The notes beneath the pieces were generated by a model. That model saw nothing but the letters and a program-made list of their open reading frames with translations, had not been told where the DNA came from and ran no database searches. The position numbers and the translations under genes were made by a program. DNA of 64,000 nucleotides, taken from assembly GCA_949152475.1 (NCBI GenBank), contig CASCJZ010000520.1:868001-932000 (forward strand), in the 5' to 3' direction. Below are positions 33,201-64,000 of this stretch, in pieces. The stretch is from Terebella lapidaria. Lineage: Eukaryota; Annelida; Polychaeta; Terebellida; Terebellidae. Position 1 is the stretch's first letter, and every line of letters begins with the position of its first letter.

Positions 33201-35030
33201 CTGTGTGACTGTGTGGTCTGTGTTAATGTGTGGTCAGTGTAATTGTGTGGTCTGTGTGACTGTGTGGTCTGTGTAACTGTGTGGTCTGTGTGACTGTGTG
33301 GTCAGTGTTACTGTGTGGTCTGTGTGACTGTGTGGTCTGTGTGACTGTGTGGTCAGTGTAACTGTGTGGTCTGTGTAACTGTGTGGTCTGTGTGACTGTG
33401 TGGTCAGTGTCACTGTGTGGACTGTGTGACTGTGTGGTCTGTGTCACTGTGTGGTCTGTGTAACTGTGTGGTCTGTGTAACTGTGTGGTCAGTGTAACTG
33501 TGTGGTCTGTGTAACTGTGGTCTGTGTAACTGTGTGGTCTGTGGAACTGTGTGATCTGTGTAACTGTGTGGTCTGTGTAACTGTGTGGTCTGTGTAACTG
33601 TGGGGTCTGTGTGGTCTGTGTGGTCTGTGTGACTGTGTGGTCTGTGTGACTGTGTGGTGTGTAACTGTGTGGTCTGTGTGACTGTGTGGTCAGTGTAACT
33701 GTGTGGTCTGTGTAACTGTGTGCTCTGTGTAACTGTGTGGTCTGTGTAACTGTGTGGTCTGTGTCACTGTGGTCTGTGTAACTGTGTGGTCTGTGTAACT
33801 GTGTGGTCTGTGTAACTGTGTGGTATGTGTGACTGTGTGGTCTGTGTAACTGTGTGGTCTGTGTGATGGTGTGGTCTGTGTAACTGTGTGGTATGTGTCC
33901 CTGTGTGGTCTGTGTAACTGTGTGGTCAGTGTAACTGTGTGCTCTGTGTAACTGTGTGGTCTGTGTAACTGTGTGGTCTGTGTCACTGTGTGGTCAGTGT
34001 AACTGTGTGGTATGTGTAACTGTGTGCTCAGTGTAACTGTGTGGTCAGTGTAACTGTGTGGTCTGTGTGGTATGTGTAACTGTGTGGTCTGTGTAACTGT
34101 TTAATCTGTGTAACTGTGTGGTCTGTGTAACTGTGCAGTCTGTGTAACTCTGCGGTCTGTGTCACTGTGCGGTCTGTGTCACTGTGTGGTCTGTGTCACT
34201 GTGTGGTCTGTGTCACTGTGTGGTCTGTGTCACTGTGTGGTCTGTGTAACTGTGCGGTCTGTGTAACTGTGCAGTCTGTGTAACTGTGTGGTCTGTGTGA
34301 CTGTGTGGTCTGTGTGACTGTGTGGTCTGTGTGACTGTGGTCTGTGTCACTGTGTGGTCTGTGTGGTCTGTGTGATCTGTGTGACTGTGTGGTCTGTGTG
34401 ACTGTGTGGTCTGTGTCACTGTGTGGTCTGTGTAACTGTGGTCAGTGTAACTGTGTGGTCTGTGTAACTGTGTGGTCTGTGTGACTGTGGGATCTGTGTA
34501 ACTGTGCGGTCTGTGTAACTGTGCGGTCTGTGTAACTGTGTGGTCTGTGTCACTGTGGTCTGTGTAACTGTGTGGTCTGTGTGGTCTGTAACTGTGTGGT
34601 CTGTGTCACTGTGTGGTCTGTGTGACTGTGTGGTCTATGTAACTGTGTGGTCTGTGTAACTGTGTGGTCTGTGTAGCTGTGGTCTCTGTAGCTGTGTGGT
34701 CTGTGTAACTGTGTGGTCTGTGTAACTGTGTGGTCTGTGTAACTGTGTGGTCAGTGTAACTGTGTGGTCTGTGTGACTGTGTGGTCTGTGTAACTGTGTG
34801 GTCTGTGTAACTGTGTGGTCTGTGTAACTGTGTGGTCTGTGTAACTGTGTGGTCTGTGTAGCTGTGGTCTCTGTAGCTGTGTGGTCTGTGTAACTGTGTG
34901 GTCTGTGTAACTGTGTGGTCTGTGTAACTGTGTGGTCAGTGTAACTGTGTGCTCTGTGTAACTGTGTGGTCTGTGTAACTGTGTGGTCTGTGTCACTGTG
35001 TGGTCAGTGTAACTGTGTGGTCTGTGTAAC
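33201..35030. repeat. Block shared with the Y duplication (49.2-50.6 and 52.4-53.8 kb)
   Basis: The right part matches at offset 15544 (34213 with 49757; 34751 with 50295), including the TGTGGGATCTG unit, GGTCTATGTAAC and two paired TAGCTG modules. Around 33890 this copy has GGTATGTGTCCCTG, where the Y copies carry a different short insertion near 49.43 and 52.62 kb. The left part (33223-33450) has the GTGTTA/GTGTAATTG cluster seen near 4.36 kb. Confidence 0.75.
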
Positions 35031-37657
35031 TGTGGTCAGTGTAACTGTGAGGTCTGTGTAACTGTGTGGTCTGTGTGACTGTGTGATCTGTGTAACTGTG
35101 CGGTCTGTGTAACTGTGCGGTCTGTGTAACTGTGTGGTCCGTGTAACTGTGTGGTCTGTGTGATCTGTAACTGTGTGGTCTGTGTCACTGTGTGGTCTGT
35201 GTAACTGTGTGGTCTGTGTAACTGTGTGGTCTGTGTAACTGTGGTCTGTGTGGTCTGTGTGACTGTGTGGTCTGTGTGACTGTGTGGTGTGTAACTGTGT
35301 GGTCGGTGTGACTGTGTGGTCCGTGTAACTGTGTGGTCTGTGTAACTGTGTGCTCTGTGTAACTGTGTGGTCTGTGTAACTGTGTGGTCTGTGTCACTGT
35401 GGTCTGTGTAACTGTGTGGTCTGTGTAACTGTGGTCAGTGTAACTGTGTGGTCTGTGTAACTGTGTGGTCTGTGTGACTGTGTGATCTGTGTAACTGTGC
35501 GGTCTGTGTAACTGTGTGGTCTGTGTGACTGTGTGGTCTGTGTGACTGTGTGGTCTATGTAACTGTGTGGTCTGTGTAACTGTGTGGTCTGTGTGATGGT
35601 GTGGTCTGTGTAACTGTGTGGTCTGTGTAACTGTGTGGTCTGTGTCACTGTGTGGTCTATGTAACTGTGTGGTCAGTGTAACTGTGTGGTCTGTGTCACT
35701 GTGTGGTCTGTGTGACTGTGTGGTCTGTGTCACTGTGTGGTCTGTATAAATGTGTGGTCTGTGTAACTTTGTGGTCAGTGTAACTGTGTGGTCTGTGTAA
35801 CTGTGTGGTCCGTGTAACTGTGTGGTCTGTGTAACTGTGTGGTCTGTGTAACTGTGTGGTCTGTGTAACTGTGTGGTCTGTGTAACTGTGTGGTCTGTGT
35901 AACTATGTGGTCTGTGTAACTGTGTGGGCAGTGTAACTGTGTGGTCTGTGTGGTCTGTGTGACTGTGTGGTCTGTGTAACTGTGTGGTCTGTGTGACTGT
36001 GTGGTCTGTGTTACTGTGTGGTCAGTGTAATTGTGTGGTCTGTGTGACTGTGTGGTCTGTGTAACTGTGTGGTCCGTGTAACTGTGTGGTCTGTGTGATC
36101 TGTAACTGTGTGGTCTGTGTCACTGTGTGGTCTGTGTAACTGTGTGGTCTGTGTAACTGTGTGGTCTGTGTAACTGTGGTCTGTGTGGTCTGTGTGACTG
36201 TGTGGTCTGTGTGACTGTGTGGTGTGTAACTGTGTGGTCGGTGTGACTGTGTGGTCAGTGTAACTGTGTGGTCTGTGTAACTGTGTGCTCTGTGTAACTG
36301 TGTGGTCTGTGTAACTGTGTGGTCTGTGTCACTGTGGTCTGTGTAACTGTGTGGTCTGTGTAACTGTGTGGTATGTGTGACTGTGTGGTCTGTGTAACTG
36401 TGTGGTCTGTGTGATGGGGTGGTCTGTGTAACTGTGTGGTATGTATCCCTGTGTGGTCTGTGTAACTGTGTGGTCAGTGTAACTGTGTGCTATGTGTAAC
36501 TGTGTGGTCTGTGTAACTGTGTGGTCTGTGTCACTGTGTGGTCAGTGTAACTGTGTGGTCTGTGTAACTGTGTGCTCTGTGTAACTGTGTGGTCTGTGTA
36601 ACTGTGTGGTCTGTGTCACTGTGGTCTGTGTAACTGTGTGGTCTGTGTAACTGTGTGGTCTGTGTAACTGTGTGGTCTGTGTAACTGTGTGGTATGTGTC
36701 CCTGTGTGGTCTGTGTAACTGTGTGGTCAGTGTAACTGTGTGGTCTGTGTAACTGTGGTCTGTGTGGTCTGTGTAACTGTGTGATCTGTGTAACTGTGTG
36801 GTCTGTGTGACTGTGTGGTCTGTGTAACTGTGTGGTCTGTGTAACTGTGTGGTCTGTGTAACTGTGTGGTCTGTGTCACTGTGGTCTGTGTAACTGTGTG
36901 GTCTGTGTGGTCTGTAACTGTGTGGTCTGTGTCACTGTGTGGTCTGTGTAACTGTGTGGTCTGTGTAACTGTGGTCAGTGTAACTGTGTGGTCTGTGTAA
37001 CTGTGTGGTCTGTGTGACTGTGTGATCTGTGTAACTGTGCGGTCTGTGTAACTGTGCGGTCTGTGTAACTGTGTGGTCCGTGTAACTGTGTGGTCTGTGT
37101 GATCTGTAACTGTGTGGTCTGTGTCACTGTGTGGTCTGTGTGACTGTGTGGTCTATGTAACTGTGTGGTCTGTGTAACTGTGTGGTCTGTGTGATGGTGT
37201 GGTCTGTGTAACTGTGTGGTCTGTGTAACTGTGTGGTCTGTGTCACTGTGTGGTCTATGTAACTGTGTGGTCAGTGTAACTGTGTGGTCTGTGTCACTGT
37301 GTGGTCTGTGTGACTGTGTGGTCTGTGTCACTGTGTGGTCTGTATAAATGTGTGGTCTGTGTAACTTTGTGGTCAGTGTAACTGTGTGGTCTGTGTAACT
37401 GTGTGGTCCGTGTAACTGTGTGGTCTGTGTAACTGTGTGGTCTGTGTAACTGTGTGGTCTGTGTAACTGTGTGGTCTGTGTAACTGTGTGGTCCGTGTAA
37501 CTGTGGTCTGTGTAACTGTGTGGTCTGTGTAACTGTGTGGTCTGTGTAACTGTGTGGTCTGTGTAACTGTGTGGGCAGTGTAACTGTGTGGTCTGTGTGG
37601 TCTGTGTGACTGTGTGGTCTGTGTAACTGTGTGGTCTGTGTGACTGTGTGGTCTGTG
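35031..37657. repeat. Nested duplications of 935 and 1598 bp
   Basis: The GTGTGATCTGTAAC unit occurs at 35162, 36097 (935 bp, 55 x 17) and about 37101. The TATAAA-bearing unit at 35745 recurs at 37343 (1598 bp, 94 x 17). The flanking GTCCGTG, CTTTGTGGTC and GTGGGCAGTG units follow the same order in each copy. About 36218-37057 is the copy of 28801-29640. The final stretch (37.32-37.66 kb) matches the left flank of X3 (54.07-54.40 kb) at offset 16747. Confidence 0.75.
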
Positions 37658-38596
37658 TTACTGTGTGGTCAGTGTAATTGTGTGGTCTGTGTGACTGTGT
37701 GGTCTGTGTAACTGTGTGGTCTGTGTGACTGTGTGGTCAGTGTTACTGTGTGGTCTGTGTGACTGTGTGGTCTGTGTGACTGTGTGGTCAGTGTAACTGT
37801 GTGGTCTGTGTAACTGTGTGGTCTGTGTGACTGTGTGGTCAGTGTCACTGTGTGGACTGTGTGACTGTGGGATCTGTGTAACTGTGCGGTCTGTGTAACT
37901 GTGCGGTCTGTGTAACTGTGTGGTCTGTCTCACTGTGGTCTGTGTAACTGTGTGGTCTGTGTGGTCTGTAACTGTGTGGTCTGTGTCACTGTGTGGTCTG
38001 TGTGACTGTGTGGTCTATGTAACTGTGTGGTCTGTGTAACTGTGTGGTCTGTGTAGCTGTGGTCTCTGTAGCTGTGTGGTCTGTGTAACTGTGTGGTCTG
38101 TGTAAATGTGTGGTCTGTGTAACTGTGTGGTCAGTGTAACTGTGTGGTCTGTGTGACTGTGTGGTCTGTGTAACTGTGTGGTCTGTGTAACTGTGTGGTC
38201 TGTGTAACTGTGTGGTCTGTGTAACTGTGTGGTCTGTGTAGCTGTGGTCTCTGTAGCTGTGTGGTCTGTGTAACTGTGTGGTCTGTGTAACTGTGTGGTC
38301 TGTGTAACTGTGTGGTCAGTGTAACTGTGTGCTCTGTGTAACTGTGTGGTCTGTGTAACTGTGTGGTCTGTGTCACTGTGTGGTCAGTGTAACTGTGTGG
38401 TCTGTGTAACTGTGGTCAGTGTAACTGTGTGGTCTGTGTAACTGTGTGGTCTGTGTGACTGTGTGATCTGTGTAACTGTGCGGTCTGTGTAACTGTGCGG
38501 TCTGTGTAACTGTGTGGTCCGTGTAACTGTGTGGTCTGTGTGATCTGTAACTGTGTGGTCTGTGTCACTGTGTGGTCTGTGTAACTGTGTGGTCTG

Positions 38597-38632
38597 TGTA
38601 ACTGTGGTCTCTGTAACTATATTCTGTGTGGT
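38597..38632. repeat. Private disrupted units in X1
   Basis: The usual GTGGTCTGTGTAACTG context is replaced here by GTCTCTGTAACTATATTC. This combination is seen nowhere else in the window. It lies about 0.15 kb before the point where X1 rejoins its sister copies after the net 289-bp loss, so it may be a scar of the same event. Confidence 0.7.
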
Positions 38633-41092
38633 CTGTGTGACTGTGTGGTCTGTGTGACTGTGTGGTGTGTAACTGTGTGGTCGGTGTGACTGTGTGGTCA
38701 GTGTAACTGTGTGGTCTGTGTAACTGTGTGCTCTGTGTAACTGTGTGGTCTGTGTAACTGTGTGGTCTGTGTAACTGTGTGGTCTGTGTAACTGTGTGGT
38801 GGTCTGTGTAACTGTGTGGTATGTGTCCCTGTGTGGTCTGTGTAACTGTGTGGTGGTCTGTGTAACTGTGTGGTATGTGTCCCTGTGTGGTCTGTGTCAC
38901 TGTGTGGTCTGTGTCACTGTGTGGTCTATGTAACTGTGTGGTCTGTGTAACTGTGTGGTCTGTGTGATGGTGTGGTCTGTGTAACTGTGTGGTCTGTGTA
39001 ACTGTGTGGTCTGTGTCACTGTGTGGTCTATGTAACTGTGTGGTCAGTGTAACTGTGTGGTCTGTGTCACTGTGTGGTCTGTGTGACTGTGTGGTCTGTG
39101 TCACTGTGTGGTCTGTATAAATGTGTGGTCTGTGTAACTTTGTGGTCAGTGTAACTGTGTGGTCTGTGTAACTGTGTGGTCCGTGTAACTGTGTGGTCTA
39201 TGTAACTGTGTGGTCTGTGTAACTGTGTGGTCTGTGTAACTGTGTGGTCTGTGTAACTGTGTGGTCCGTGTAACTGTGTGGTCTGTGTAACTGTGTGGTC
39301 TGTGTAACTGTGTGGTCTGTGTAACTATGTGGTCTGTGTAACTGTGTGGGCAGTGTAACTGTGTGGTCTGTGTGGTCGGTGTGACTGTGTGGTCTGTGTA
39401 ACTGTGTGGTCTGTGTGACTGTGTGGTCTGTGTTACTGTGTGGTCAGTGTAATTGTGTGGTCTGTGTGACTGTGTGGTCTGTGTAACTGTGTGGTCTGTG
39501 TGACTGTGTGGTCAGTGTTACTGTGTGGTCTGTGTGACTGTGTGGTCTGTGTGACTGTGTGGTCAGTGTAACTGTGTGGTCTGTGTAACTGTGTGGTCTG
39601 TGTGACTGTGTGGTCAGTGTCACTGTGTGGACTGTGTGACTGTGTGGTCTGTGTCACTGTGTGGTCTGTGTAACTGTGTGGTCTGTGTAACTGTGTGGTC
39701 AGTGTAACTGTGTGGTCTGTGTAACTGTGGTCTGTGTGGTCTGTGTAACTGTGTGGTCTGTGGAACTGTGTGATCTGTGTAACTGTGTGGTCTGTGTAAC
39801 TGTGTGGTCTGTGTAACTGTGGGGTCTGTGTGGTCTGTGTGACTGTGTGGTCTGTGTGACTGTGTGGTGTGTAACTGTGTGGTCTGTGTGACTGTGTGGT
39901 CAGTGTCACTGTGTGGTCTGTGTAACTGTGTGCTCTGTGTAACTGTGTGCTCTGTGTAACTGTGTGGTCTGTGTCACTGTGGTCTGTGTAACTGTGTGGT
40001 CTGTGTAACTGTGTGGTCTGTGTAACTGTGTGGTATGTGTGACTGTGTGGTCTGTGTAACTGTGTGGTCTGTGTGATGGTGTGGTCTGTGTAACTGTGTG
40101 GTATGTGTCCCTGTGTGGTCTGTGTAACTGTGTGGTCAGTGTAACTGTGTGCTCTGTGTAACTGTGTGGTCTGTGTAACTGTGTGGTCTGTGTCACTGTG
40201 TGGTCAGTGTAACTGTGTGGTCTGTGTAACTGTGTGCTCAGTGTAACTGTGTGGTCAGTGTAACTGTGTGGTCTGTGTAACTGTTTAATCTGTGTAACTG
40301 TGTGGTCTGTGTAACTGTGCAGTCTGTGTAACTGTGCGGTCTGTGTCACTGTGCGGTCTGTGTCACTGTGTGGTCTGTGTCACTGTGTGGTCTGTGTCAC
40401 TGTGTGGTCTGTGTAACTGTGCGGTCTGTGTAACTGTGCAGTCTGTGTAACTGTGCGGTCTGTGTGACTGTGTGGTCTGTGTGACTGTGTGGTCTGTGTG
40501 ACTGTGGTCTGTGTCACTGTGTGGTCTGTGTCACTGTGTGGTCTGTGTGGTCTGTGTGATCTGTGTGACTGTGTGGTCTGTGTGACTGTGTGGTCTGTGT
40601 CACTGTGTGGTCTGTGTGGTCTGTGTAACTGTGGTCAGTGTAACTGTGTGGTCTGTGTAACTGTGTGGTCTGTGTGACTGTGGGATCTGTGTAACTGTGC
40701 GGTCTGTGTAACTGTGCGGTCTGTGTAACTGTGTGGTCTGTGTCACTGTGGTCTGTGTAACTGTGTGGTCTGTGTGGTCTGTAACTGTGTGGTCTGTGTC
40801 ACTGTGTGGTCTGTGTGACTGTGTGGTCTATGTAACTGTGTGGTCTGTGTAACTGTGTGGTCTGTGTAGCTGTGGTCTCTGTAGCTGTGTGGTCTGTGTA
40901 ACTGTGTGGTCTGTGTAACTGTGTGGTCTGTGTAACTGTGTGGTTTGTGTAACTGTGTGGTCTGTGTAACTGTGTGGTCAGTGTAACTGTGTGGTCTGTG
41001 TCACTGTGCGGTCTGTGTGACTGTGTGGTCTGTGTGACTGTGTGGTCTGTGTGACTGTGTGGTCTAGGTGACTGTGGTCTGTGTCACTGTGT

Positions 41093-41137
41093 GGTCTGTG
41101 TGGTCTGTGTGATCTGTGTGGTCTGTGTGATCTGTGT
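41093..41137. repeat. Five tandem 9-bp half-units (X1 marker)
   Basis: Order of 9-mers: GGTCTGTGT, GGTCTGTGT, GATCTGTGT, GGTCTGTGT, GATCTGTGT, then GACTG. The same five lie at 58129-58173 in X3, exactly 17036 bp away. X2 and X4 have instead an additional C-type 17-mer and only three 9-mers. This is one of the best markers pairing X1 with X3. Confidence 0.88.
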
Positions 41138-42643
41138 GACTGTGTGGTCTGTGTGACTGTGTGGTCTGTGTAACTGTGTGGTCTGTGTGGTCTGTGTAAC
41201 TGTGTGGTCTGTGTAACTGTGGTCTGTGTAACTGTGGTCCGTGTAACTGTGTGGTTTGTGTCACTGTGTGGTCTGTGTCACTGTGTGGTCTGTGTCACTG
41301 TGTGGTCTGTGTCACTGTGTGGTTTGTGTCACTGTGTGGTCAGTGTAACTGTGTGGTCTGTGTAACTGTGTGGTTTGTGTGACTGTGTGGTCAGTGTCAC
41401 TGTGTGGACTGTGTGACTGTGTGGTCTGTGTCACTGTGTGATCTGTGTAACTGTGTGGTCTGTGTAACTGTGTGGTCAGTGTAACTGTGTGGTCTGTGTA
41501 ACTGTGGTCTGTGTGGTCTGTGTAACTGTGTGGTCTGTGGAACTGTGTGATCTGTGTAACTGTGTGGTCTGTGTAACTGTGTGGTCTGTGTAACTGTGGT
41601 CTGTGTGGTCTGTGTAACTGTGTGGTCTGTGTAACTGTGATCTGTGTAACTATGGTCCGTGTGACTGTGTGGTCTGTGTTACTGTGTGGTCTGTGTAACT
41701 GTGTGGTCTGTGTGGTCTGTGTAACTGTGTGGTCTGTGTGACTGTGTGGTCTGTGTGACTGTGTGGTCTGTGTAACTGTATGGTCTTTGTGGTCTGTGTG
41801 GTCTGTGTAACTGTGTGGTCTGTGTAATTGTGTGGTCTGTGTGGTCTGTGGGGTCTGTGTGGTCTGTGTAACTGTGTGGTCTGTGCAATTGTGTGGTCTG
41901 TGTAACTGTGTAACTGTGTGGTCTGTGTGACTGTGTGGTCTGTGTGACTGTGTGGTGAGTGTAACTGTGTGGTCTGTGTAACTGTGTGGTCTGTGTGACT
42001 GTGTGGTCTGTGTGACTGTGTGGTGAGTGTAACTGTGTGGTCTGTGTAACTGTGTGGTCTGTGTGACTGTGTGGTCTGTGTAACTGTGTGGTCTGTGTAA
42101 CTGTGTGGTCTGTGTGACTGTGTGGTCTGTGTGACTGTGTGGTCTGTGTGACTGTGTGGTCTGTGTAACTGTGTGGTCTGTGTGACTGTGTGGTCTGTGT
42201 CACTGTGTGGTCTGTGTGGTCTGTGTAACTGTGTGGTTTGTGTAACTGTGTGGTCAGTGTAACTGTGTGGTCTGTGTAACTGTGTGGTCTGTGTGACTGT
42301 GTGGTCTGTGTAACTGTGTGGTCTGTGTGACTGTGTGGTCTGTCTAACTGTGTGGTCTGTGTGGTCTGTGTAACTGTGTGGTCTGTGTAACTGTGTGGTC
42401 TGTGTGACTGTGTGGTCTGTGTGACTGTGTGGTCTGTGTGACTGTGTGGTCTGTGTAACTGTGTGGTCTGTGTGACTGTGTGGTCTGTGTAACTGTGTGG
42501 TCTGTGTGGTCTGTGTAACTGTGTGGTCTGTGTAACTATGTGGTCTGTGTAACTGTGTGGGCAGTGTAACTGTGTGGTCTGTGTGGTCTGTGTGACTGTG
42601 TGGTCTGTGTAACTGTGTGGTCTGTGTGACTGTGTGGTCTGTG

Positions 42644-45600
42644 TTACTGTGTGGTCAGTGTAATTGTGTGGTCTGTGTGACTGTGTGGTCTGTGTAACTG
42701 TGTGGTCTGTGTGACTGTGTGGTCAGTGTTACTGTGTGGTCTGTGTGACTGTGTGGTCTGTGTGACTGTGTGGTCAGTGTAACTGTGTGGTCTGTGTAAC
42801 TGTGTGGTCTGTGTGACTGTGTGGTCAGTGTCACTGTGTGGACTGTGTGACTGTGGGATCTGTGTAACTGTGCGGTCTGTGTAACTGTGCGGTCTGTGTA
42901 ACTGTGTGGTCTGTCTCACTGTGGTCTGTGTAACTGTGTGGTCTGTGTGGTCTGTAACTGTGTGGTCTGTGTCACTGTGTGGTCTGTGTGACTGTGTGGT
43001 CTATGTAACTGTGTGGTCTGTGTAACTGTGTGGTCTGTGTAGCTGTGGTCTCTGTAGCTGTGTGGTCTGTGTAACTGTGTGGTCTGTGTAAATGTGTGGT
43101 CTGTGTAACTGTGTGGTCAGTGTAACTGTGTGGTCTGTGTGACTGTGTGGTCTGTGTAACTGTGTGGTCTGTGTAACTGTGTGGTCTGTGTAACTGTGTG
43201 GTCTGTGTAACTGTGTGGTCTGTGTAGCTGTGGTCTCTGTAGCTGTGTGGTCTGTGTAACTGTGTGGTCTGTGTAACTGTGTGGTCTGTGTAACTGTGTG
43301 GTCAGTGTAACTGTGTGCTCTGTGTAACTGTGTGGTCTGTGTAACTGTGTGGTCTGTGTCACTGTGTGGTCAGTGTAACTGTGTGGTCTGTGTAACTGTG
43401 GTCAGTGTAACTGTGTGGTCTGTGTAACTGTGTGGTCTGTGTGACTGTGTGATCTGTGTAACTGTGCGGTCTGTGTAACTGTGCGGTCTGTGTAACTGTG
43501 TGGTCCGTGTAACTGTGTGGTCTGTGTGATCTGTAACTGTGTGGTCTGTGTCACTGTGTGGTCTGTGTAACTGTGTGGTCTGTGTAACTGTGTGGTCTGT
43601 GTAACTGTGGTCTGTGTGGTCTGTGTGACTGTGTGGTCTGTGTGACTGTGTGGTGTGTAACTGTGTGGTCGGTGTGACTGTGTGGTCAGTGTAACTGTGT
43701 GGTCTGTGTAACTGTGTGCTCTGTGTAACTGTGTGGTCTGTGTAACTGTGTGGTCTGTGTCACTGTGGTCTGTGTAACTGTGTGGTCTGTGTAACTGTGT
43801 GGTATGTGTGACTGTGTGGTCTGTGTAACTGTGTGGTCTGTGTGATGGGGTGGTCTGTGTAACTGTGTGGTATGTATCCCTGTGTGGTCTGTGTAACTGT
43901 GTGGTCAGTGTAACTGTGTGCTATGTGTAACTGTGTGGTCTGTGTAACTGTGTGGTCTGTGTCACTGTGTGGTCAGTGTAACTGTGTGGTCTGTGTAACT
44001 GTGTGCTCTGTGTAACTGTGTGGTCTGTGTAACTGTGTGGTCTGTGTAACTGTGTGGTCTGTGTAACTGTGTGGTGGTCTGTGTAACTGTGTGGTATGTG
44101 TCCCTGTGTGGTCTGTGTAACTGTGTGGTGGTCTGTGTAACTGTGTGGTATGTGTCCCTGTGTGGTCTGTGTCACTGTGTGGTCTGTGTCACTGTGTGGT
44201 CTATGTAACTGTGTGGTCTGTGTAACTGTGTGGTCTGTGTGATGGTGTGGTCTGTGTAACTGTGTGGTCTGTGTAACTGTGTGGTCTGTGTCACTGTGTG
44301 GTCTATGTAACTGTGTGGTCAGTGTAACTGTGTGGTCTGTGTCACTGTGTGGTCTGTGTGACTGTGTGGTCTGTGTCACTGTGTGGTCTGTATAAATGTG
44401 TGGTCTGTGTAACTTTGTGGTCAGTGTAACTGTGTGGTCTGTGTAACTGTGTGGTCCGTGTAACTGTGTGGTCTATGTAACTGTGTGGTCTGTGTAACTG
44501 TGTGGTCTGTGTAACTGTGTGGTCTGTGTAACTGTGTGGTCCGTGTAACTGTGTGGTCTGTGTAACTGTGTGGTCTGTGTAACTGTGTGGTCTGTGTAAC
44601 TATGTGGTCTGTGTAACTGTGTGGGCAGTGTAACTGTGTGGTCTGTGTGGTCGGTGTGACTGTGTGGTCTGTGTAACTGTGTGGTCTGTGTGACTGTGTG
44701 GTCTGTGTTACTGTGTGGTCAGTGTAATTGTGTGGTCTGTGTGACTGTGTGGTCTGTGTAACTGTGTGGTCTGTGTGACTGTGTGGTCAGTGTTACTGTG
44801 TGGTCTGTGTGACTGTGTGGTCTGTGTGACTGTGTGGTCAGTGTAACTGTGTGGTCTGTGTAACTGTGTGGTCTGTGTGACTGTGTGGTCAGTGTCACTG
44901 TGTGGACTGTGTGACTGTGTGGTCTGTGTCACTGTGTGGTCTGTGTAACTGTGTGGTCTGTGTAACTGTGTGGTCAGTGTAACTGTGTGGTCTGTGTAAC
45001 TGTGGTCTGTGTGGTCTGTGTAACTGTGTGGTCTGTGGAACTGTGTGATCTGTGTAACTGTGTGGTCTGTGTAACTGTGTGGTCTGTGTAACTGTGGGGT
45101 CTGTGTGGTCTGTGTGACTGTGTGGTCTGTGTGACTGTGTGGTGTGTAACTGTGTGGTCTGTGTGACTGTGTGGTCAGTGTCACTGTGTGGTCTGTGTAA
45201 CTGTGTGCTCTGTGTAACTGTGTGCTCTGTGTAACTGTGTGGTCTGTGTCACTGTGGTCTGTGTAACTGTGTGGTCTGTGTAACTGTGTGGTCTGTGTAA
45301 CTGTGTGGTATGTGTGACTGTGTGGTCTGTGTAACTGTGTGGTCTGTGGGATGGTGTGGTCTGTGTAACTGTGTGGTATGTGTCCCTGTGTGGTCTGTGT
45401 AACTGTGTGGTCAGTGTAACTGTGTGCTCTGTGTAACTGTGTGGTCTGTGTAACTGTGTGGTCTGTGTCACTGTGTGGTCAGTGTAACTGTGTGGTCTGT
45501 GTAACTGTGTGCTCAGTGTAACTGTGTGGTCAGTGTAACTGTGTGGTCTGTGTAACTGTTTAATCTGTGTAACTGTGTGGTCTGTGTAACTGTGCAGTCT

Positions 45601-53700: not shown

Positions 53701-54067
53701 GTCTGTGTAACTGTGTGGTCTGTGTCACTGTGTGGTCAGTGTAACTGTGTGGTCTGTGTAACTGTGGTCAGTGTAACTGTGTGGTCTGTGTAACTGTGTG
53801 GTCTGTGTGATTGTGTGATCTGTGTAACTGTGCGGTCTGTGTAACTGTGCGGTCTGTGTAACTGTGTGGTCCGTGTAACTGTGTGGTCTGTGTGATCTGT
53901 AACTGTGTGGTCTGTGTCACTGTGTGGTCTGTGTAACTGTGTGGTCTGTGTAACTGTGTGGTCTGTGTAACTGAGGTCTGTGTGGTCTGTGTGACTGTGT
54001 GGTCTGTGTGACTGTGTGGTGTGTAACTGTGTGGTCTGTGTCACTGTGTGGTCTGTGTGACTGTGTG
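47798..54067. repeat. Y region: 3188-bp tandem duplication with nested 707-bp repeat
   Basis: Exact 3188-bp spacing: GTCTAAC at 47616 and 50804, TTTAAT at 48000 and 51188, TTTAAT at 48707 and 51895, GATTGTGTGATC at 50621 and 53809. The repeated unit starts inside the end of X2 (about 47.61 kb) and the second copy ends near 53.88 kb. Each copy contains an internal 707-bp repeat (48000/48707 and 51188/51895) and then the block shared with 33.2-35.0 kb. Rare CTGTTTTGTCTG units near 48925 and 52114 mark both copies. After 53.88 kb the sequence passes to X-type flank with GATCTGTAAC. Confidence 0.85.
50621..50824. repeat. 102-bp local duplication (6 units) at the Y1/Y2 junction
   Basis: GATTGTGTGATC occurs at 50621 and 50723, 102 bp (6 x 17) apart, with CTGTCTAAC following each time. 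Only one GATTG is present at the right end of Y2 (53809). The short duplication thus sits exactly where Y1 is joined to Y2. Confidence 0.8.
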
Positions 54068-57000
54068 GTCTGTGTCACTGTGTGGTCTGTATAAATGTGT
54101 GGTCTGTGTAACTTTGTGGTCAGTGTAACTGTGTGGTCTGTGTAACTGTGTGGTCCGTGTAACTGTGTGGTCTGTGTAACTGTGTGGTCTGTGTAACTGT
54201 GTGGTCTGTGTAACTGTGTGGTCTGTGTAACTGTGTGGTCCGTGTAACTGTGGTCTGTGTAACTGTGTGGTCTGTGTAACTGTGTGGTCTGTGTAACTAT
54301 GTGGTCTGTGTAACTGTGTGGGCAGTGTAACTGTGTGGTCTGTGTGGTCTGTGTGACTGTGTGGTCTGTGTAACTGTGTGGTCTGTGTGACTGTGTGGTC
54401 TGTGTTACTGTGTGGTCAGTGTAATTGTGTGGTCTGTGTGACTGTGTGGTCTGTGTAACTGTGTGGTCTGTGTGACTGTGTGGTCAGTGTTACTGTGTGG
54501 TCTGTGTGACTGTGTGGTCTGTGTGACTGTGTGGTCAGTGTAACTGTGTGGTCTGTGTAACTGTGTGGTCTGTGTGACTGTGTGGTCAGTGTCACTGTGT
54601 GGACTGTGTGACTGTGGGATCTGTGTAACTGTGCGGTCTGTGTAACTGTGCGGTCTGTGTAACTGTGTGGTCTGTCTCACTGTGGTCTGTGTAACTGTGT
54701 GGTCTGTGTGGTCTGTAACTGTGTGGTCTGTGTCACTGTGTGGTCTGTGTGACTGTGTGGTCTATGTAACTGTGTGGTCTGTGTAACTGTGTGGTCTGTG
54801 TAGCTGTGGTCTCTGTAGCTGTGTGGTCTGTGTAACTGTGTGGTCTGTGTAAATGTGTGGTCTGTGTAACTGTGTGGTCAGTGTAACTGTGTGGTCTGTG
54901 TGACTGTGTGGTCTGTGTAACTGTGTGGTCTGTGTAACTGTGTGGTCTGTGTAACTGTGTGGTCTGTGTAACTGTGTGGTCTGTGTAGCTGTGGTCTCTG
55001 TAGCTGTGTGGTCTGTGTAACTGTGTGGTCTGTGTAACTGTGTGGTCTGTGTAACTGTGTGGTCAGTGTAACTGTGTGCTCTGTGTAACTGTGTGGTCTG
55101 TGTAACTGTGTGGTCTGTGTCACTGTGTGGTCAGTGTAACTGTGTGGTCTGTGTAACTGTGGTCAGTGTAACTGTGTGGTCTGTGTAACTGTGTGGTCTG
55201 TGTGACTGTGTGATCTGTGTAACTGTGCGGTCTGTGTAACTGTGCGGTCTGTGTAACTGTGTGGTCCGTGTAACTGTGTGGTCTGTGTGATCTGTAACTG
55301 TGTGGTCTGTGTCACTGTGTGGTCTGTGTAACTGTGTGGTCTGTGTAACTGTGTGGTCTGTGTAACTGTGGTCTGTGTGGTCTGTGTGACTGTGTGGTCT
55401 GTGTGACTGTGTGGTGTGTAACTGTGTGGTCGGTGTGACTGTGTGGTCAGTGTAACTGTGTGGTCTGTGTAACTGTGTGCTCTGTGTAACTGTGTGGTCT
55501 GTGTAACTGTGTGGTCTGTGTCACTGTGGTCTGTGTAACTGTGTGGTCTGTGTAACTGTGTGGTATGTGTGACTGTGTGGTCTGTGTAACTGTGTGGTCT
55601 GTGTGATGGGGTGGTCTGTGTAACTGTGTGGTATGTATCCCTGTGTGGTCTGTGTAACTGTGTGGTCAGTGTAACTGTGTGCTATGTGTAACTGTGTGGT
55701 GTGTGTAACTGTGTGGTCTGTGTCACTGTGTGGTCAGTGTAACTGTGTGGTCTGTGTAACTGTGTGCTCTGTGTAACTGTGTGGTCTGTGTAACTGTGTG
55801 GTCTGTGTAACTGTGTGGTCTGTGTAACTGTGTGGTGGTCTGTGTAACTGTGTGGTATGTGTCCCTGTGTGGTCTGTGTAACTGTGTGGTGGTCTGTGTA
55901 ACTGTGTGGTATGTGTCCCTGTGTGGTCTGTGTCACTGTGTGGTCTGTGTCACTGTGTGGTCTATGTAACTGTGTGGTCTGTGTAACTGTGTGGTCTGTG
56001 TGATGGTGTGGTCTGTGTAACTGTGTGGTCTGTGTAACTGTGTGGTCTGTGTCACTGTGTGGTCTATGTAACTGTGTGGTCAGTGTAACTGTGTGGTCTG
56101 TGTCACTGTGTGGTCTGTGTGACTGTGTGGTCTGTGTCACTGTGTGGTCTGTATAAATGTGTGGTCTGTGTAACTTTGTGGTCAGTGTAACTGTGTGGTC
56201 TGTGTAACTGTGTGGTCCGTGTAACTGTGTGGTCTATGTAACTGTGTGGTCTGTGTAACTGTGTGGTCTGTGTAACTGTGTGGTCTGTGTAACTGTGTGG
56301 TCCGTGTAACTGTGTGGTCTGTGTAACTGTGTGGTCTGTGTAACTGTGTGGTCTGTGTAACTATGTGGTCTGTGTAACTGTGTGGGCAGTGTAACTGTGT
56401 GGTCTGTGTGGTCGGTGTGACTGTGTGGTCTGTGTAACTGTGTGGTCTGTGTGACTGTGTGGTCTGTGTTACTGTGTGGTCAGTGTAATTGTGTGGTCTG
56501 TGTGACTGTGTGGTCTGTGTAACTGTGTGGTCTGTGTGACTGTGTGGTCAGTGTTACTGTGTGGTCTGTGTGACTGTGTGGTCTGTGTGACTGTGTGGTC
56601 AGTGTAACTGTGTGGTCTGTGTAACTGTGTGGTCTGTGTGACTGTGTGGTCAGTGTCACTGTGTGGACTGTGTGACTGTGTGGTCTGTGTCACTGTGTGG
56701 TCTGTGTAACTGTGTGGTCTGTGTAACTGTGTGGTCAGTGTAACTGTGTGGTCTGTGTAACTGTGGTCTGTGTGGTCTGTGTAACTGTGTGGTCTGTGGA
56801 ACTGTGTGATCTGTGTAACTGTGTGGTCTGTGTAACTGTGTGGTCTGTGTAACTGTGGGGTCTGTGTGGTCTGTGTGACTGTGTGGTCTGTGTGACTGTG
56901 TGGTGTGTAACTGTGTGGTCTGTGTGACTGTGTGGTCAGTGTCACTGTGTGGTCTGTGTAACTGTGTGCTCTGTGTAACTGTGTGCTCTGTGTAACTGTG

Positions 57001-59679
57001 TGGTCTGTGTCACTGTGGTCTGTGTAACTGTGTGGTCTGTGTAACTGTGTGGTCTGTGTAACTGTGTGGTATGTGTGACTGTGTGGTCTGTGTAACTGTG
57101 TGGTCTGTGTGATGGTGTGGTCTGTGTAACTGTGTGGTATGTGTCCCTGTGTGGTCTGTGTAACTGTGTGGTCAGTGTAACTGTGTGCTCTGTGTAACTG
57201 TGTGGTCTGTGTAACTGTGTGGTCTGTGTCACTGTGTGGTCAGTGTAACTGTGTGGTCTGTGTAACTGTGTGCTCAGTGTAACTGTGTGGTCAGTGTAAC
57301 TGTGTGGTCTGTGTAACTGTTTAATCTGTGTAACTGTGTGGTCTGTGTAACTGTGCAGTCTGTGTAACTGTGCGGTCTGTGTCACTGTGCGGTCTGTGTC
57401 ACTGTGTGGTCTGTGTCACTGTGTGGTCTGTGTCACTGTGTGGTCTGTGTAACTGTGCGGTCTGTGTAACTGTGCAGTCTGTGTAACTGTGCGGTCTGTG
57501 TGACTGTGTGGTCTGTGTGACTGTGTGGTCTGTGTGACTGTGGTCTGTGTCACTGTGTGGTCTGTGTCACTGTGTGGTCTGTGTGGTCTGTGTGATCTGT
57601 GTGACTGTGTGGTCTGTGTGACTGTGTGGTCTGTGTCACTGTGTGGTCTGTGTGGTCTGTGTAACTGTGGTCAGTGTAACTGTGTGGTCTGTGTAACTGT
57701 GTGGTCTGTGTGACTGTGGGATCTGTGTAACTGTGCGGTCTGTGTAACTGTGCGGTCTGTGTAACTGTGTGGTCTGTGTCACTGTGGTCTGTGTAACAGT
57801 GTGGTCTGTGTGGTCTGTAACTGTGTGGTCTGTGTCACTGTGTGGTCTGTGTGACTGTGTGGTCTATGTAATTGTGTGGTCTGTGTAACTGTGTGGTCTG
57901 TGTAGCTGTGGTCTCTGTAGCTGTGTGGTCTGTGTAACTGTGTGGTCTGTGTAACTGTGTGGTCTGTGTAACTGTGTGGTTTGTGTAACTGTGTGGTCTG
58001 TGTAACTGTGTGGTCAGTGTAACTGTGTGGTCTGTGTCACTGTGCGGTCTGTGTGACTGTGTGGTCTGTGTGACTGTGTGGTCTGTGTGACTGTGTGGTC
58101 TAGGTGACTGTGGTCTGTGTCACTGTGTGGTCTGTGTGGTCTGTGTGATCTGTGTGGTCTGTGTGATCTGTGTGACTGTGTGGTCTGTGTGACTGTGTGG
58201 TCTGTGTAACTGTGTGGTCTGTGTGGTCTGTGTAACTGTGTGGTCTGTGTAACTGTGGTCTGTGTAACTGTGGTCCGTGTAACTGTGTGGTTTGTGTCAC
58301 TGTGTGGTCTGTGTCACTGTGTGGTCTGTGTCACTGTGTGGTCTGTGTCACTGTGTGGTTTGTGTCACTGTGTGGTCAGTGTAACTGTGTGGTCTGTGTA
58401 ACTGTGTGGTCTGTGTGACTGTGTGGTCAGTGTCACTGTGTGGACTGTGTGACTGTGTGGTCTGTGTCACTGTGTGATCTGTGTAACTGTGTGGTCTGTG
58501 TAACTGTGTGGTCAGTGTAACTGTGTGGTCTGTGTAACTGTGGTCTGTGTGGTCTGTGTAACTGTGTGGTCTGTGGAACTGTGTGATCTGTGTAACTGTG
58601 TGGTCTGTGTAACTGTGTGGTCTGTGTAACTGTGGTCTGTGTGGTCTGTGTAACTGTGTGGTCTGTGTAACTGTGATCTGTGTAACTATGGTCCGTGTGA
58701 CTGTGTGGTCTGTGTTACTGTGTGGTCTGTGTAACTGTGTGGTCTGTGTGGTCTGTGTCACTGTGTGGTCTGTGTGACTGTGTGGTCTGTGTGACTGTGT
58801 GGTCTGTGTAACTGTATGGTCTTTGTGGTCTGTGTGGTCTGTGTAACTGTGTGGTCTGTGTAATTGTGTGGTCTGTGTGGTCTGTGGGGTCTGTGTGGTC
58901 TGTGTAACTGTGTGGTCTGTGCAATTGTGTGGTCTGTGTAACTGTGTAACTGTGTGGTCTGTGTGACTGTGTGGTCTGTGTGACTGTGTGGTGAGTGTAA
59001 CTGTGTGGTCTGTGTAACTGTGTGGTCTGTGTGACTGTGTGGTCTGTGTGACTGTGTGGTGAGTGTAACTGTGTGGTCTGTGTAACTGTGTGGTCTGTGT
59101 GACTGTGTGGTCTGTGTAACTGTGTGGTCTGTGTAACTGTGTGGTCTGTGTGACTGTGTGGTCTGTGTGACTGTGTGGTCTGTGTGACTGTGTGGTCTGT
59201 GTAACTGTGTGGTCTGTGTGACTGTGTGGTCTGTGTCACTGTGTGGTCTGTGTGGTCTGTGTAACTGTGTGGTTTGTGTAACTGTGTGGTCAGTGTAACT
59301 GTGTGGTCTGTGTAACTGTGTGGTCTGTGTGACTGTGTGGTCTGTGTAACTGTGTGGTCTGTGTGACTGTGTGGTCTGTCTAACTGTGTGGTCTGTGTGG
59401 TCTGTGTAACTGTGTGGTCTGTGTAACTGTGTGGTCTGTGTGACTGTGTGGTCTGTGTGACTGTGTGGTCTGTGTGACTGTGTGGTCTGTGTAACTGTGT
59501 GGTCTGTGTGACTGTGTGGTCTGTGTAACTGTGTGGTCTGTGTGGTCTGTGTAACTGTGTGGTCTGTGTAACTATGTGGTCTGTGTAACTGTGTGGGCAG
59601 TGTAACTGTGTGGTCTGTGTGGTCTGTGTGACTGTGTGGTCTGTGTAACTGTGTGGTCTGTGTGACTGTGTGGTCTGTG
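54068..59679. repeat. ~5.27-kb block X3 with its left flank
   Basis: The block proper starts at 54405. The flank 54068-54404 matches 37321-37657 (TATAAA at 54090 and 37343, offset 16747), including the 15-mer after GTCCGTG. X3 has X1's five 9-mers at 58129-58173 but does not share X1's 289-bp loss. Offsets: 11761 from X2, 5275 to X4, 17036 from the right part of X1. Private changes include GGTGTGTGTAAC near 55699 and AACAGTGTGG near 57795. Confidence 0.85.
58129..58173. repeat. Five tandem 9-bp half-units (X3 marker)
   Basis: Same order and composition as 41093-41137 in X1, at offset 17036, and absent from X2 and X4. Confidence 0.88.
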
Positions 59680-62600
59680 TTACTGTGTGGTCAGTGTAAT
59701 TGTGTGGTCTGTGTGACTGTGTGGTCTGTGTAACTGTGTGGTCTGTGTGACTGTGTGGTCAGTGTTACTGTGTGGTCTGTGTGACTGTGTGGTCTGTGTG
59801 ACTGTGTGGTCAGTGTAACTGTGTGGTCTGTGTAACTGTGTGGTCTGTGTGACTGTGTGGTCAGTGTCACTGTGTGGACTGTGTGACTGTGGGATCTGTG
59901 TAACTGTGCGGTCTGTGTAACTGTGCGGTCTGTGTAACTGTGTGGTCTGTCTCACTGTGGTCTGTGTAACTGTGTGGTCTGTGTGGTCTGTAACTGTGTG
60001 GTCTGTGTCACTGTGTGGTCTGTGTGACTGTGTGGTCTATGTAACTGTGTGGTCTGTGTAACTGTGTGGTCTGTGTAGCTGTGGTCTCTGTAGCTGTGTG
60101 GTCTGTGTAACTGTGTGGTCTGTGTAAATGTGTGGTCTGTGTAACTGTGTGGTCAGTGTAACTGTGTGGTCTGTGTGACTGTGTGGTCTGTGTAACTGTG
60201 TGGTCTGTGTAACTGTGTGGTCTGTGTAACTGTGTGGTCTGTGTAACTGTGTGGTCTGTGTAGCTGTGGTCTCTGTAGCTGTGTGGTCTGTGTAACTGTG
60301 TGGTCTGTGTAACTGTGTGGTCTGTGTAACTGTGTGGTCAGTGTAACTGTGTGCTCTGTGTAACTGTGTGGTCTGTGTAACTGTGTGGTCTGTGTCACTG
60401 TGTGGTCAGTGTAACTGTGTGGTCTGTGTAACTGTGGTCAGTGTAACTGTGTGGTCTGTGTAACTGTGTGGTCTGTGTGACTGTGTGATCTGTGTAACTG
60501 TGCGGTCTGTGTAACTGTGCGGTCTGTGTAACTGTGTGGTCCGTGTAACTGTGTGGTCTGTGTGATCTGTAACTGTGTGGTCTGTGTCACTGTGTGGTCT
60601 GTGTAACTGTGTGGTCTGTGTAACTGTGTGGTCTGTGTAACTGTGGTCTGTGTGGTCTGTGTGACTGTGTGGTCTGTGTGACTGTGTGGTGTGTAACTGT
60701 GTGGTCGGTGTGACTGTGTGGTCAGTGTAACTGTGTGGTCTGTGTAACTGTGTGCTCTGTGTAACTGTGTGGTCTGTGTAACTGTGTGGTCTGTGTCACT
60801 GTGGTCTGTGTAACTGTGTGGTCTGTGTAACTGTGTGGTATGTGTGACTGTGTGGTCTGTGTAACTGTGTGGTCTGTGTGATGGGGTGGTCTGTGTAACT
60901 GTGTGGTATGTATCCCTGTGTGGTCTGTGTAACTGTGTGGTCAGTGTAACTGTGTGCTATGTGTAACTGTGTGGTCTGTGTAACTGTGTGGTCTGTGTCA
61001 CTGTGTGGTCAGTGTAACTGTGTGGTCTGTGTAACTGTGTGCTCTGTGTAACTGTGTGGTCTGTGTAACTGTGTGGTCTGTGTAACTGTGTGGTCTGTGT
61101 AACTGTGTGGTGGTCTGTGTAACTGTGTGGTATGTGTCCCTGTGTGGTCTGTGTAACTGTGTGGTGGTCTGTGTAACTGTGTGGTATGTGTCCCTGTGTG
61201 GTCTGTGTCACTGTGTGGTCTGTGTCACTGTGTGGTCTATGTAACTGTGTGGTCTGTGTAACTGTGTGGTCTGTGTGATGGTGTGGTCTGTGTAACTGTG
61301 TGGTCTGTGTAACTGTGTGGTCTGTGTCACTGTGTGGTCTATGTAACTGTGTGGTCAGTGTAACTGTGTGGTCTGTGTCACTGTGTGGTCTGTGTGACTG
61401 TGTGGTCTGTGTCACTGTGTGGTCTGTATAAATGTGTGGTCTGTGTAACTTTGTGGTCAGTGTAACTGTGTGGTCTGTGTAACTGTGTGGTCCGTGTAAC
61501 TGTGTGGTCTATGTAACTGTGTGGTCTGTGTAACTGTGTGGTCTGTGTAACTGTGTGGTCCGTGTAACTGTGTGGTCTGTGTAACTGTGTGGTCTGTGTA
61601 ACTGTGTGGTCTGTGTAACTATGTGGTCTGTGTAACTGTGTGGGCAGTGTAACTGTGTGGTCTGTGTGGTCGGTGTGACTGTGTGGTCTGTGTAACTGTG
61701 TGGTCTGTGTGACTGTGTGGTCTGTGTTACTGTGTGGTCAGTGTAATTGTGTGGTCTGTGTGACTGTGTGGTCTGTGTAACTGTGTGGTCTGTGTGACTG
61801 TGTGGTCAGTGTTACTGTGTGGTCTGTGTGACTGTGTGGTCTGTGTGACTGTGTGGTCAGTGTAACTGTGTGGTCTGTGTAACTGTGTGGTCTGTGTGAC
61901 TGTGTGGTCAGTGTCACTGTGTGGACTGTGTGACTGTGTGGTCTGTGTCACTGTGTGGTCTGTGTAACTGTGTGGTCTGTGTAACTGTGTGGTCAGTGTA
62001 ACTGTGTGGTCTGTGTAACTGTGGTCTGTGTGGTCTGTGTAACTGTGTGGTCTGTGGAACTGTGTGATCTGTGTAACTGTGTGGTCTGTGTAACTGTGTG
62101 GTCTGTGTAACTGTGGGGTCTGTGTGGTCTGTGTGACTGTGTGGTCTGTGTGACTGTGTGGTGTGTAACTGTGTGGTCTGTGTGACTGTGTGGTCAGTGT
62201 CACTGTGTGGTCTGTGTAACTGTGTGCTCTGTGTAACTGTGTGCTCTGTGTAACTGTGTGGTCTGTGTCACTGTGGTCTGTGTAACTGTGTGGTCTGTGT
62301 AACTGTGTGGTCTGTGTAACTGTGTGGTATGTGTGACTGTGTGGTCTGTGTAACTGTGTGGTCTGTGTGATGGTGTGGTCTGTGTAACTGTGTGGTATGT
62401 GTCCCTGTGTGGTCTGTGTAACTGTGTGGTCAGTGTAACTGTGTGCTCTGTGTAACTGTGTGGTCTGTGTAACTGTGTGGTCTGTGTCACTGTGTGGTCA
62501 GTGTAACTGTGTGGTCTGTGTAACTGTGTGCTCAGTGTAACTGTGTGGTCAGTGTAACTGTGTGGTCTGTGTAACTGTTTAATCTGTGTAACTGTGTGGT

Positions 62601-64000
62601 CTGTGTAACTGTGCAGTCTGTGTAACTGTGCGGTCTGTGTCACTGTGCGGTCTGTGTCACTGTGTGGTCTGTGTCACTGTGTGGTCTGTGTCACTGTGTG
62701 GTCTGTGTAACTGTGCGGTCTGTGTAACTGTGCAGTCTGTGTAACTGTGCGGTCTGTGTGACTGTGTGGTCTGTGTGACTGTGTGGTCTGTGTCACTGTG
62801 GTCTGTGTCACTGTGTGGTCTGTGTCACTGTGTGGTCTGTGTGGTCTGTGTGATCTGTGTGACTGTGTGGTCTGTGTGACTGTGTGGTCTGTGTCACTGT
62901 GTGGTCTGTGTGGTCTGTGTAACTGTGGTCAGTGTAACTGTGTGGTCTGTGTAACTGTGTGGTCTGTGTGACTGTGGGATCTGTGTAACTGTGCGGTCTG
63001 TGTAACTGTGCGGTCTGTGTAACTGTGTGGTCTGTGTCACTGTGGTCTGTGTAACTGTGTGGTCTGTGTGGTCTGTAACTGTGTGGTCTGTGTCACTGTG
63101 TGGTCTGTGTGACTGTGTGGTCTATGTAACTGTGTGGTCTGTGTAACTGTGTGGTCTGTGTAGCTGTGGTCTCTGTAGCTGTGTGGTCTGTGTAACTGTG
63201 TGGTCTGTGTAACTGTGTGGTCTGTGTAACTGTGTGGTTTGTGTAACTGTGTGGTCTGTGTAACTGTGTGGTCAGTGTAACTGTGTGGTCTGTGTCACTG
63301 TGCGGTCTGTGTGACTGTGTGGTCTGTGTGACTGTGTGGTCTGTGTGACTGTGTGGTCTAGGTGACTGTGGTCTGTGTCACTGTGTGGTCTGTGTCACTG
63401 TGTGGTCTGTGTGGTCTGTGTGATCTGTGTGACTGTGTGGTCTGTGTGACTGTGTGGTCTGTGTAACTGTGTGGTCTGTGTGGTCTGTGTAACTGTGTGG
63501 TCTGTGTAACTGTGGTCTGTGTAACTGTGGTCCGTGTAACTGTGTGGTTTGTGTCACTGTGTGGTCTGTGTCACTGTGTGGTCTGTGTCACTGTGTGGTC
63601 TGTGTCACTGTGTGGTTTGTGTCACTGTGTGGTCAGTGTAACTGTGTGGTCTGTGTAACTGTGTGGTCTGTGTGACTGTGTGGTCAGTGTCACTGTGTGG
63701 ACTGTGTGACTGTGTGGTCTGTGTCACTGTGTGATCTGTGTAACTGTGTGGTCTGTGTAACTGTGTGGTCAGTGTAACTGTGTGGTCTGTGTAACTGTGG
63801 TCTGTGTGGTCTGTGTAACTGTGTGGTCTGTGGAACTGTGTGATCTGTGTAACTGTGTGGTCTGTGTAACTGTGTGGTCTGTGTAACTGTGGTCTGTGTG
63901 GTCTGTGTAACTGTGTGGTCTGTGTAACTGTGATCTGTGTAACTATGGTCCGTGTGACTGTGTGGTCTGTGTTACTGTGTGGTCTGTGTAACTGTGTGGT
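59680..64000. repeat. ~5.27-kb block X4, cut by the window edge
   Basis: It follows X3 at 5275 bp (54878 with 60153; 55605 with 60880; 56152 with 61427), dropping to 5258 after about 61.5 kb, where one 17-mer is missing between GGTCTATG and GTCCGTG. In the 63377-63434 region it carries the X2-type arrangement (two C-type 17-mers, three 9-mers) found at 46358-46415, not the X1/X3 type. The last base corresponds to about 46981 in X2, so the X2-to-Y junction equivalent lies about 0.8 kb beyond the window. Confidence 0.83.

What the first reader, a model, noticed from the sequence alone, without database searches (positions are those of the whole stretch)
37321..64000. ~17.04-kb super-repeat: X1+X2 recopied as X3+X4
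Markers are paired X1 with X3 and X2 with X4, not neighbour with neighbour. The left flank and TATAAA unit are shared at 37343/54090, five 9-mers at 41093/58129, and the alternative arrangement at 46358/63377. So X1 and X2 diverged first, and then a ~17-kb segment carrying both was duplicated. This is a third-order hierarchy above 17 bp and ~5.3 kb.
Basis: seen in the sequence. Interest (0 to 1): 0.7.

Follow-up and report, generated by a model that had tools for sequence, protein, structure and literature searches.

The report
Nested duplications inside a satellite array
A 214-kb block made of one 17-letter DNA word has repeatedly copied chunks of itself; the reported 17-kb super-repeat is one of many such copies, as ordinary unequal exchange would leave behind, so it is real but not a special third level of order.

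Summary
The duplication is real. The window lies inside a 213.7-kb array of a 17-bp repeat on contig C408 of a 761.6-Mb eukaryote assembly. X1-X4 (about 5.0-5.3 kb each) are 99.78-99.94% identical in their cores, with spacings of 16,747, 17,019 and 17,036 bp, far beyond shuffle controls. One marker, the five 9-mers at 41091 and 58127, occurs only in X1 and X3 in the whole assembly and looks derived, so X1 and X3 are sisters at that spot. The rest is weaker. That cluster is the only informative change in the 5.3-kb core; the other differences are private to one copy. X3 is on raw identity closer to X4 and X2 than to X1. X4 is closer to partial copies beyond the window (X5, X6) than to X2. The TATAAA marker occurs 14 times and pairs nothing. 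The 17,036-bp spacing appears composite: about 13.85 kb plus a later, perfect 3,188-bp tandem duplication. It is the strongest offset in the window, but only the third array-wide, where 97 exact repeats of 1 kb or more lie at 86 offsets, so no regular third order. Best reading: ongoing tandem duplication and deletion of random size by unequal exchange, with conversion-like patches.

The parts
1..64000 (+). 17-bp satellite array (GTGGTCTGTGTAACTGT); the whole window is inside it; the full array is about C408:741597-955317
   Evidence: TRF 3814 copies, period 17; array limits
33492..35304 (+). Spacer segment S left of X1, 99.34% identical to 52217-54036
   Evidence: 12 mismatches in 1,811, nine of them in two short clusters
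37274..37515 (+). Left flank of X1, identical to the left flank of X3
   Evidence: 278-bp exact match 37274/54021
37516..42501 (+). X1 core (4,986 bp; lacks 287 bp at 38688 and 2 bp at 38602 that X2-X4 have)
   Evidence: alignment; the 287-bp absence looks derived, since copies at 28799 and 36216 carry the stretch
41091..41144 (+). Five 9-mers marker of X1 (54-mer), in the assembly only in X1 and X3
   Evidence: 2 of 2 places
42502..47776 (+). X2 core (5,275 bp)
46347..46416 (+). Alternative (X2/X4-type, probably ancestral) arrangement in X2
47577..50688 (+). First copy of the perfect 3,188-bp-spaced tandem duplication (holds the right flank of X2 and spacer S')
   Evidence: 3,112-bp exact match
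50765..53876 (+). Second copy of the 3,188-bp-spaced duplication (holds spacer S'')
54021..54262 (+). Left flank of X3
54263..59537 (+). X3 core (5,275 bp)
58127..58180 (+). Five 9-mers marker of X3
59538..64000 (+). X4 core, part inside the window (it runs on to about 64795)
   Evidence: continuation read from L009
63366..63435 (+). Alternative (X2/X4-type) arrangement in X4

Best explanation
The region is part of a 17-bp satellite (large minisatellite) array with no sign of coding. Shown: long exact and near-exact copies at many spacings, some of them adjacent. Inferred: unequal exchange between misaligned copies (or replication slippage with the same outcome) repeatedly duplicates and deletes stretches of a few kb. 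X1/X2 arose by a 5.27-kb tandem duplication. A segment holding spacer, X1, X2 and right flank (about 13.85 kb) was then duplicated, giving X3/X4. A 3,188-bp duplication across the boundary later stretched the spacing to 17.04 kb. Small conversion-like patches and private mutations followed, and the right half of X4 was copied on again beyond the window. The levels follow from random event sizes and need no built-in third period or function.
For: 97 exact pairs of 1 kb or more at 86 distinct offsets (0.9-48 kb), covering 60.2% of the array. Some pairs are adjacent: 7 of 97 have offset within 200 bp of length, e.g. 2,229 bp at 2,207; 3,290 at 3,432; 3,112 at 3,188. The 3,188-bp pair has 0 mismatches in 3,112 bp while X1/X3 has 9 in 4,986. 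Spacers S' and S'' are identical to each other and both match S. Clustered private changes in X1 (a 2-bp gap and four substitutions, 38602-38622) look like a conversion patch. The two markers searched in the whole assembly are private to this array: TATAAA 36-mer 14 of 14 places, five 9-mers 2 of 2. A 30-kb sample of the C407 array shares at most 158 bp exactly with this one yet has its own repeats up to 2,126 bp. Of 24 random tandem duplication/deletion simulations, the 3 with mean event 6 kb and 5 mutations per event gave coverage 0.54-0.61, longest repeat 3.8-5.2 kb and median spacing 12.5-18.2 kb, against 0.602, 4.95 kb and 11.8 kb observed.
Against: The simulation was swept, not fitted. 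Even the 3 best runs gave fewer pairs (58-83 against 97), fewer offsets (44-59 against 86) and fewer adjacent pairs (2-3 against 7); the other 21 of 24 runs were further off overall. Spacings of 5,196-5,351 bp make up 10 of the 97 pairs, though those pairs are not independent. S/S'' differ by more per kb than X1/X3 (12 in 1,811 against 9 in 4,986), so S may not belong to the same duplication. The order X1/X2 first rests on one marker cluster. Only 30 kb of the C407 array and 1 kb or less of array sequence at each other site were compared. No reads, second haplotype or population data were available.
Confidence: 0.8

Rival explanations
1. One reading: an ordered third-order repeat in which X1 and X2 diverged, and a 17-kb unit holding both was copied once as a unit.
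For: Changed marker shared by X1 and X3 only, in the whole assembly; exact 2,801-bp run across both X-X junctions at 17,036; shared left and right flanks; 17,036 is the leading offset inside the window.
Against: Only one informative cluster in the core; X3 closer to X4 and X2 than to X1 on raw identity; X4 closer to X5/X6 than to X2 in the right half; a perfect 3,188-bp duplication is part of the spacing; 17,036 is not a recurring period array-wide.
Confidence: 0.25
2. Recurrent exchange or gene conversion among all X copies has scrambled their history, so no tree of whole blocks exists; X1/X3 likeness at the marker is a conversion tract. This is compatible with the best explanation and differs from it in denying a block tree.
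For: Clustered changes (38602-38622 in X1; 33893-33917 and 34072-34104 in S/S''); 1,282-bp exact identity of X1, X3 and X4, which X2 breaks with one change; near-star distances.
Against: Flank sharing and the exact run across the junctions at one offset are more simply explained by one segmental copy.
Confidence: 0.35
3. Assembly artefact: false tandem expansion or haplotype duplication in a contig made largely of repeats.
For: Tandem repeats are found at many of the places read on this contig; several copies are 100% identical over 3-5 kb. Its size (981 kb) beside contigs of 41.5 and 61.9 Mb suggests that it is unplaced (inference).
Against: Copies differ by scattered private changes and indels; no exact repeat in the array exceeds 4,954 bp, which long reads could span (read type unknown); nested structure is found along the whole array and in the C407 sample.
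Confidence: 0.1
4. The X blocks were spread by copying through extrachromosomal circles or rolling-circle reinsertion rather than unequal exchange.
For: Most exact pairs are not adjacent (90 of 97 by the 200-bp criterion), e.g. 4,954 bp at 11,450 and 4,428 bp at 11,948; later events can also cause this.
Against: The 62795/74245 pair brackets a third copy (68121) in the same order, which fits a tandem triplication; the two markers searched occur in no other array.
Confidence: 0.1

Closest known systems
Irregular higher-order repeats in human simple-sequence and VNTR arrays (Warburton et al. 2008, PMC2588610; passages seen; the author name is recalled)
   Same: Short-unit arrays with kb-scale near-identical super-repeats: HsatII about 5.8 kb, GAATG 3.36-3.6 kb, and a 61-bp VNTR with irregular 1.6- and 2.5-kb repeats in a complex arrangement.
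   Different: Unit sequence, host and size differ; here many offsets are overlaid along a 214-kb array and copy history was polarised with outside copies.
Alpha-satellite HOR arrays and their evolutionary layers (PMC11062924; passages seen)
   Same: Young, highly identical blocks embedded in a satellite array; unequal crossing over and saltatory amplification are discussed.
   Different: No regular HOR was found through this array; centromere function was not tested.
Tandem repeats carried inside transposable elements, e.g. Helitron-linked repeats of Crassostrea gigas (PMC10048060; passages seen)
   Same: Arrays on C408, C2 and C9 begin after the same left flank of about 780-790 bp (96-98% identical); C408 and C2 share the right flank (first 98 bp identical; further on about 84-90%), as if a dispersed segment carries the array.
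   Different: No transposase, Helitron ends or target-site duplication was tested; 214 kb far exceeds the roughly 90 monomers quoted there.

Membership tests
Satellite / large minisatellite array | Head-to-tail copies of a short unit over many kb, non-coding | tested here: met
   TRF: 3814 copies of 17 bp over 64 kb; array 213.7 kb; 42 of 42 ORFs of 100 aa or more lie on the minus strand, start at GTG or TTG and reach at most 248 aa; no protein search was made
Tandem segmental duplication by unequal exchange | Long near-identical copies, in direct orientation, some adjacent, with one offset over a long run | tested here: met
   7 of 97 exact pairs adjacent within 200 bp; the exchange itself is inferred
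Regular higher-order repeat (HOR) array | One multi-monomer block recurring at a constant period over much of the array | tested here: not met
   97 exact pairs of 1 kb or more at 86 offsets; 17,036 third among offsets counted with 1-kb words array-wide, first inside the window
Third-order 17-kb super-repeat | X1/X3 and X2/X4 exclusive pairs across the block | tested here: inconclusive
   One changed cluster for X1/X3; X2/X4 not exclusive in the right half
Helitron-type element with internal tandem repeats | Shared element flanks on both sides, element ends, Rep/helicase or non-autonomous ends | tested here: inconclusive
   Shared flanks seen; element ends and proteins not tested
Centromeric satellite | CENP-A/CENH3 occupancy | not testable with these tools
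   No chromatin data

The most novel reading that the evidence does not exclude
Duplication sizes in this array are not random: blocks near 5.2-5.35 kb were made independently several times (X1/X2, X3/X4, the 62795/68121/74245 triplet, and 5,314-bp pairs about 80 kb left of the window), which would point to a physical unit of about 5.3 kb, such as a loop or circle, that sets the step of amplification.
Probability: 0.06. Interest if true: 0.55.

Novelty: new member of a known kind. Interest (0 to 1): 0.2.

Why it matters
It gives a fully readable case of nested copying in a very short-unit satellite, with private markers that order a few events. It also warns that a spacing seen between marked blocks need not be the size of any unit that was ever copied: here 17.04 kb looks like about 13.85 kb plus a later 3.19 kb. 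Beyond that it is ordinary satellite evolution.

Tried and rejected
Rejected: a regular third-order period (offset spectrum); TATAAA as a pairing marker (14 copies); a coding reading (the minus strand of the 17-mer has no stop codon in any phase, as its letters show, so long ORFs arise by themselves). Technical failures: a BLAST self-comparison timed out and a second setting returned no rows; exact-match chaining replaced it. The first MAFFT alignment took in the unequal flanks and gave X1/X3 24 mismatches, so the core was realigned. The DNA search with the 17-mer found nothing; that tool says that it skips simple repeats, so exact patterns were used instead. No likelihood tree was run: with four copies and one informative cluster the site counts say nearly all there is. 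The organism was not identified; no taxonomy look-up was made. Three papers were seen as passages only; two literature searches were made, and no claim of absence from print is made. The classical theory of unequal crossing over in satellites is recalled, not read.
Full report
Setting. The window is G000:C408:868001-932000 of a 761.6-Mb assembly of 438 contigs, taken to be a eukaryote from its size. All 64 kb is a tandem array of GTGGTCTGTGTAACTGT (3814 copies by TRF), itself a 9+8-bp pair (window tokens: 2,915 of 9 bp and 2,758 of 8 bp among 6,757). The array runs on one strand from about C408:741597 to 955317, 213.7 kb. Of 11 samples of 1 kb between 1 and 721 kb on C408, one (200 kb) holds the array, in the other orientation; the sample at 750 kb is inside the main array. 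Other arrays of the unit lie on C2 (exact 34-mer hits over about 23 kb, with a 10-kb stretch without hits), C9 and C407.

Observation. Chance is excluded: the longest exact repeat is 3,112 bp in the window, against 89-109 bp in 10 token shuffles and 142-256 bp in 10 second-order token-Markov sequences. In the window 17,036 is the commonest offset of shared 200-, 500- and 1000-mers.

Pairing. Cores are X1 37516-42501, X2 42502-47776, X3 54263-59537 and X4 59538-64795. Identity of compared bases: X2/X4 99.943, X3/X4 99.848, X2/X3 99.829, X1/X3 99.819, X1/X4 99.799, X1/X2 99.779. So X2/X4 is the closest pair and X1/X2 the least alike, but X3 is nearer X4 and X2 than X1. In the aligned core the only columns that split the copies two against two lie in one cluster (41102-41112 and equivalents) and support X1+X3 against X2+X4; a further column at the very end of the alignment is an end effect. 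Other differences are private: X1 has a changed patch at 38602-38622, the loss of 287 bp, and single changes at 37552 and 41375; X3 four single changes; X2 two; X4 a 17-bp loss and one change. X1's base at 37552 is also found in a copy at 29811, so it may be old rather than new.

Rooting. Two partial copies right of the window, X5 (68120-70645) and X6 (74244-77131), cover the right half of X only and carry the X2/X4 state of the cluster. The X1/X3 54-mer occurs at 2 of 2 places in the whole assembly, both here. X1+X3 is therefore supported by one change that looks derived and is found nowhere else. X2+X4 is not exclusive in this half: mismatches are X4/X6 1, X4/X5 1 and X2/X5 1 (each with one 9-bp gap), X2/X6 2 and X2/X4 3, the X5 comparisons being shorter (2,526 against 2,888 bases). 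The TATAAA 36-mer occurs 14 times, all in this array, and once inside each X, so it pairs nothing.

The 17.04 kb. Between X2 and X3 lies a perfect tandem duplication, 47577-50688 = 50765-53876, spacing 3,188. Its copies hold the right flank of X2 and spacers S' and S'', which are identical over 1,660 bp and both resemble S left of X1 (99.33 and 99.34%). The simplest reading, inferred, is that a segment S-X1-X2-flank was duplicated at about 13.85 kb (17,036 minus 3,188) and the 3,188-bp event later fell across the boundary. S/S'' carry more differences per kb than X1/X3 (12 in 1,811 against 9 in 4,986), so S may have a separate history.

Array-wide. Exact repeats of 1 kb or more cover 60.2% of the array: 97 pairs at 86 offsets from 0.9 to 48 kb, longest 4,954 bp at 11,450. 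With 1-kb words, 11,948 and 11,450 outrank 17,036. Seven of 97 pairs are adjacent within 200 bp. The 62795/68121/74245 copies look like a tandem triplication with a 0.9-kb internal expansion in the middle copy (inference). A 30-kb sample of C407 has its own repeats (4 exact pairs of 1 kb or more, longest 2,126 bp) and shares at most 158 bp exactly with the C408 array, no more than the Markov control gives. So super-repeats look private to each array, as far as sampled.

Model check. In 24 simulations (8 settings, 3 runs each) of random tandem duplication and deletion with mutation, the 3 runs at mean size 6 kb and 5 mutations per event came near the real array in coverage, longest repeat and spacing spread. 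They fell short in pairs (58-83 against 97), offsets (44-59 against 86) and adjacent pairs (2-3 against 7), and the other 21 runs were further off overall. This shows that random event sizes are enough in kind; it does not estimate rates.

Flanks. The arrays on C408, C2 and C9 start after the same left flank (about 780-790 bp, 96-98% identical). C408 and C2 share a right flank, identical over the first 98 bp and about 84-90% alike further on. A dispersed segment may have seeded arrays that then grew on their own; this was not tested further.

Known kinds. Irregular kb-scale super-repeats in short-unit arrays are described for human HsatII, GAATG and a 61-bp VNTR (PMC2588610, passages); [quoted passage not shown] This is a new member of that kind.

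Noticed in passing
C408 about 190-266 kb (L016 samples it): A second 17-bp array in the opposite orientation on the same contig, with five copies of the left flank at 209.1, 226.8, 243.9, 253.9 and 266.3 kb (a lower bound); spacings of 17.7, 17.1, 9.9 and 12.5 kb suggest that flank and array are amplified together there.
   Followed up: partly
C407 about 8.7-124 kb (L035-L037 sample 30 kb of it): A further large array of the same unit, with its own private duplications (4,755-bp spacing, exact run of 2,126 bp).
   Followed up: partly
C408 about 960.6-969.7 kb and 969.7-981.2 kb (L011-L013): Right of the array lie a 33-bp tandem array of 277 copies and a 61/122/410-bp tandem array that reaches the contig end; no TTAGGG- or TTAGG-type telomere repeats were found from 788001 to the contig end.
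   Followed up: no
C408:955318-959800 and flanks on C2, C9 (L026-L028): Flanks hold about 134-bp tandem units and inverted-repeat motifs of the form AGGTTACCGGACC...GGTCCGATAACCT followed by CGTCCGT runs, like ends of a dispersed element.
   Followed up: no
C2:49828971-49831825: 29 matches to the 98-bp right-flank stretch, many about 90 bp apart (a lower bound), i.e. the flank itself has become a tandem array there.
   Followed up: no
window 1-64000, minus strand: All 42 ORFs of 100 aa or more are on the minus strand, because the reverse complement of the 17-mer has no stop codon in any phase; not evidence of genes.
   Followed up: yes
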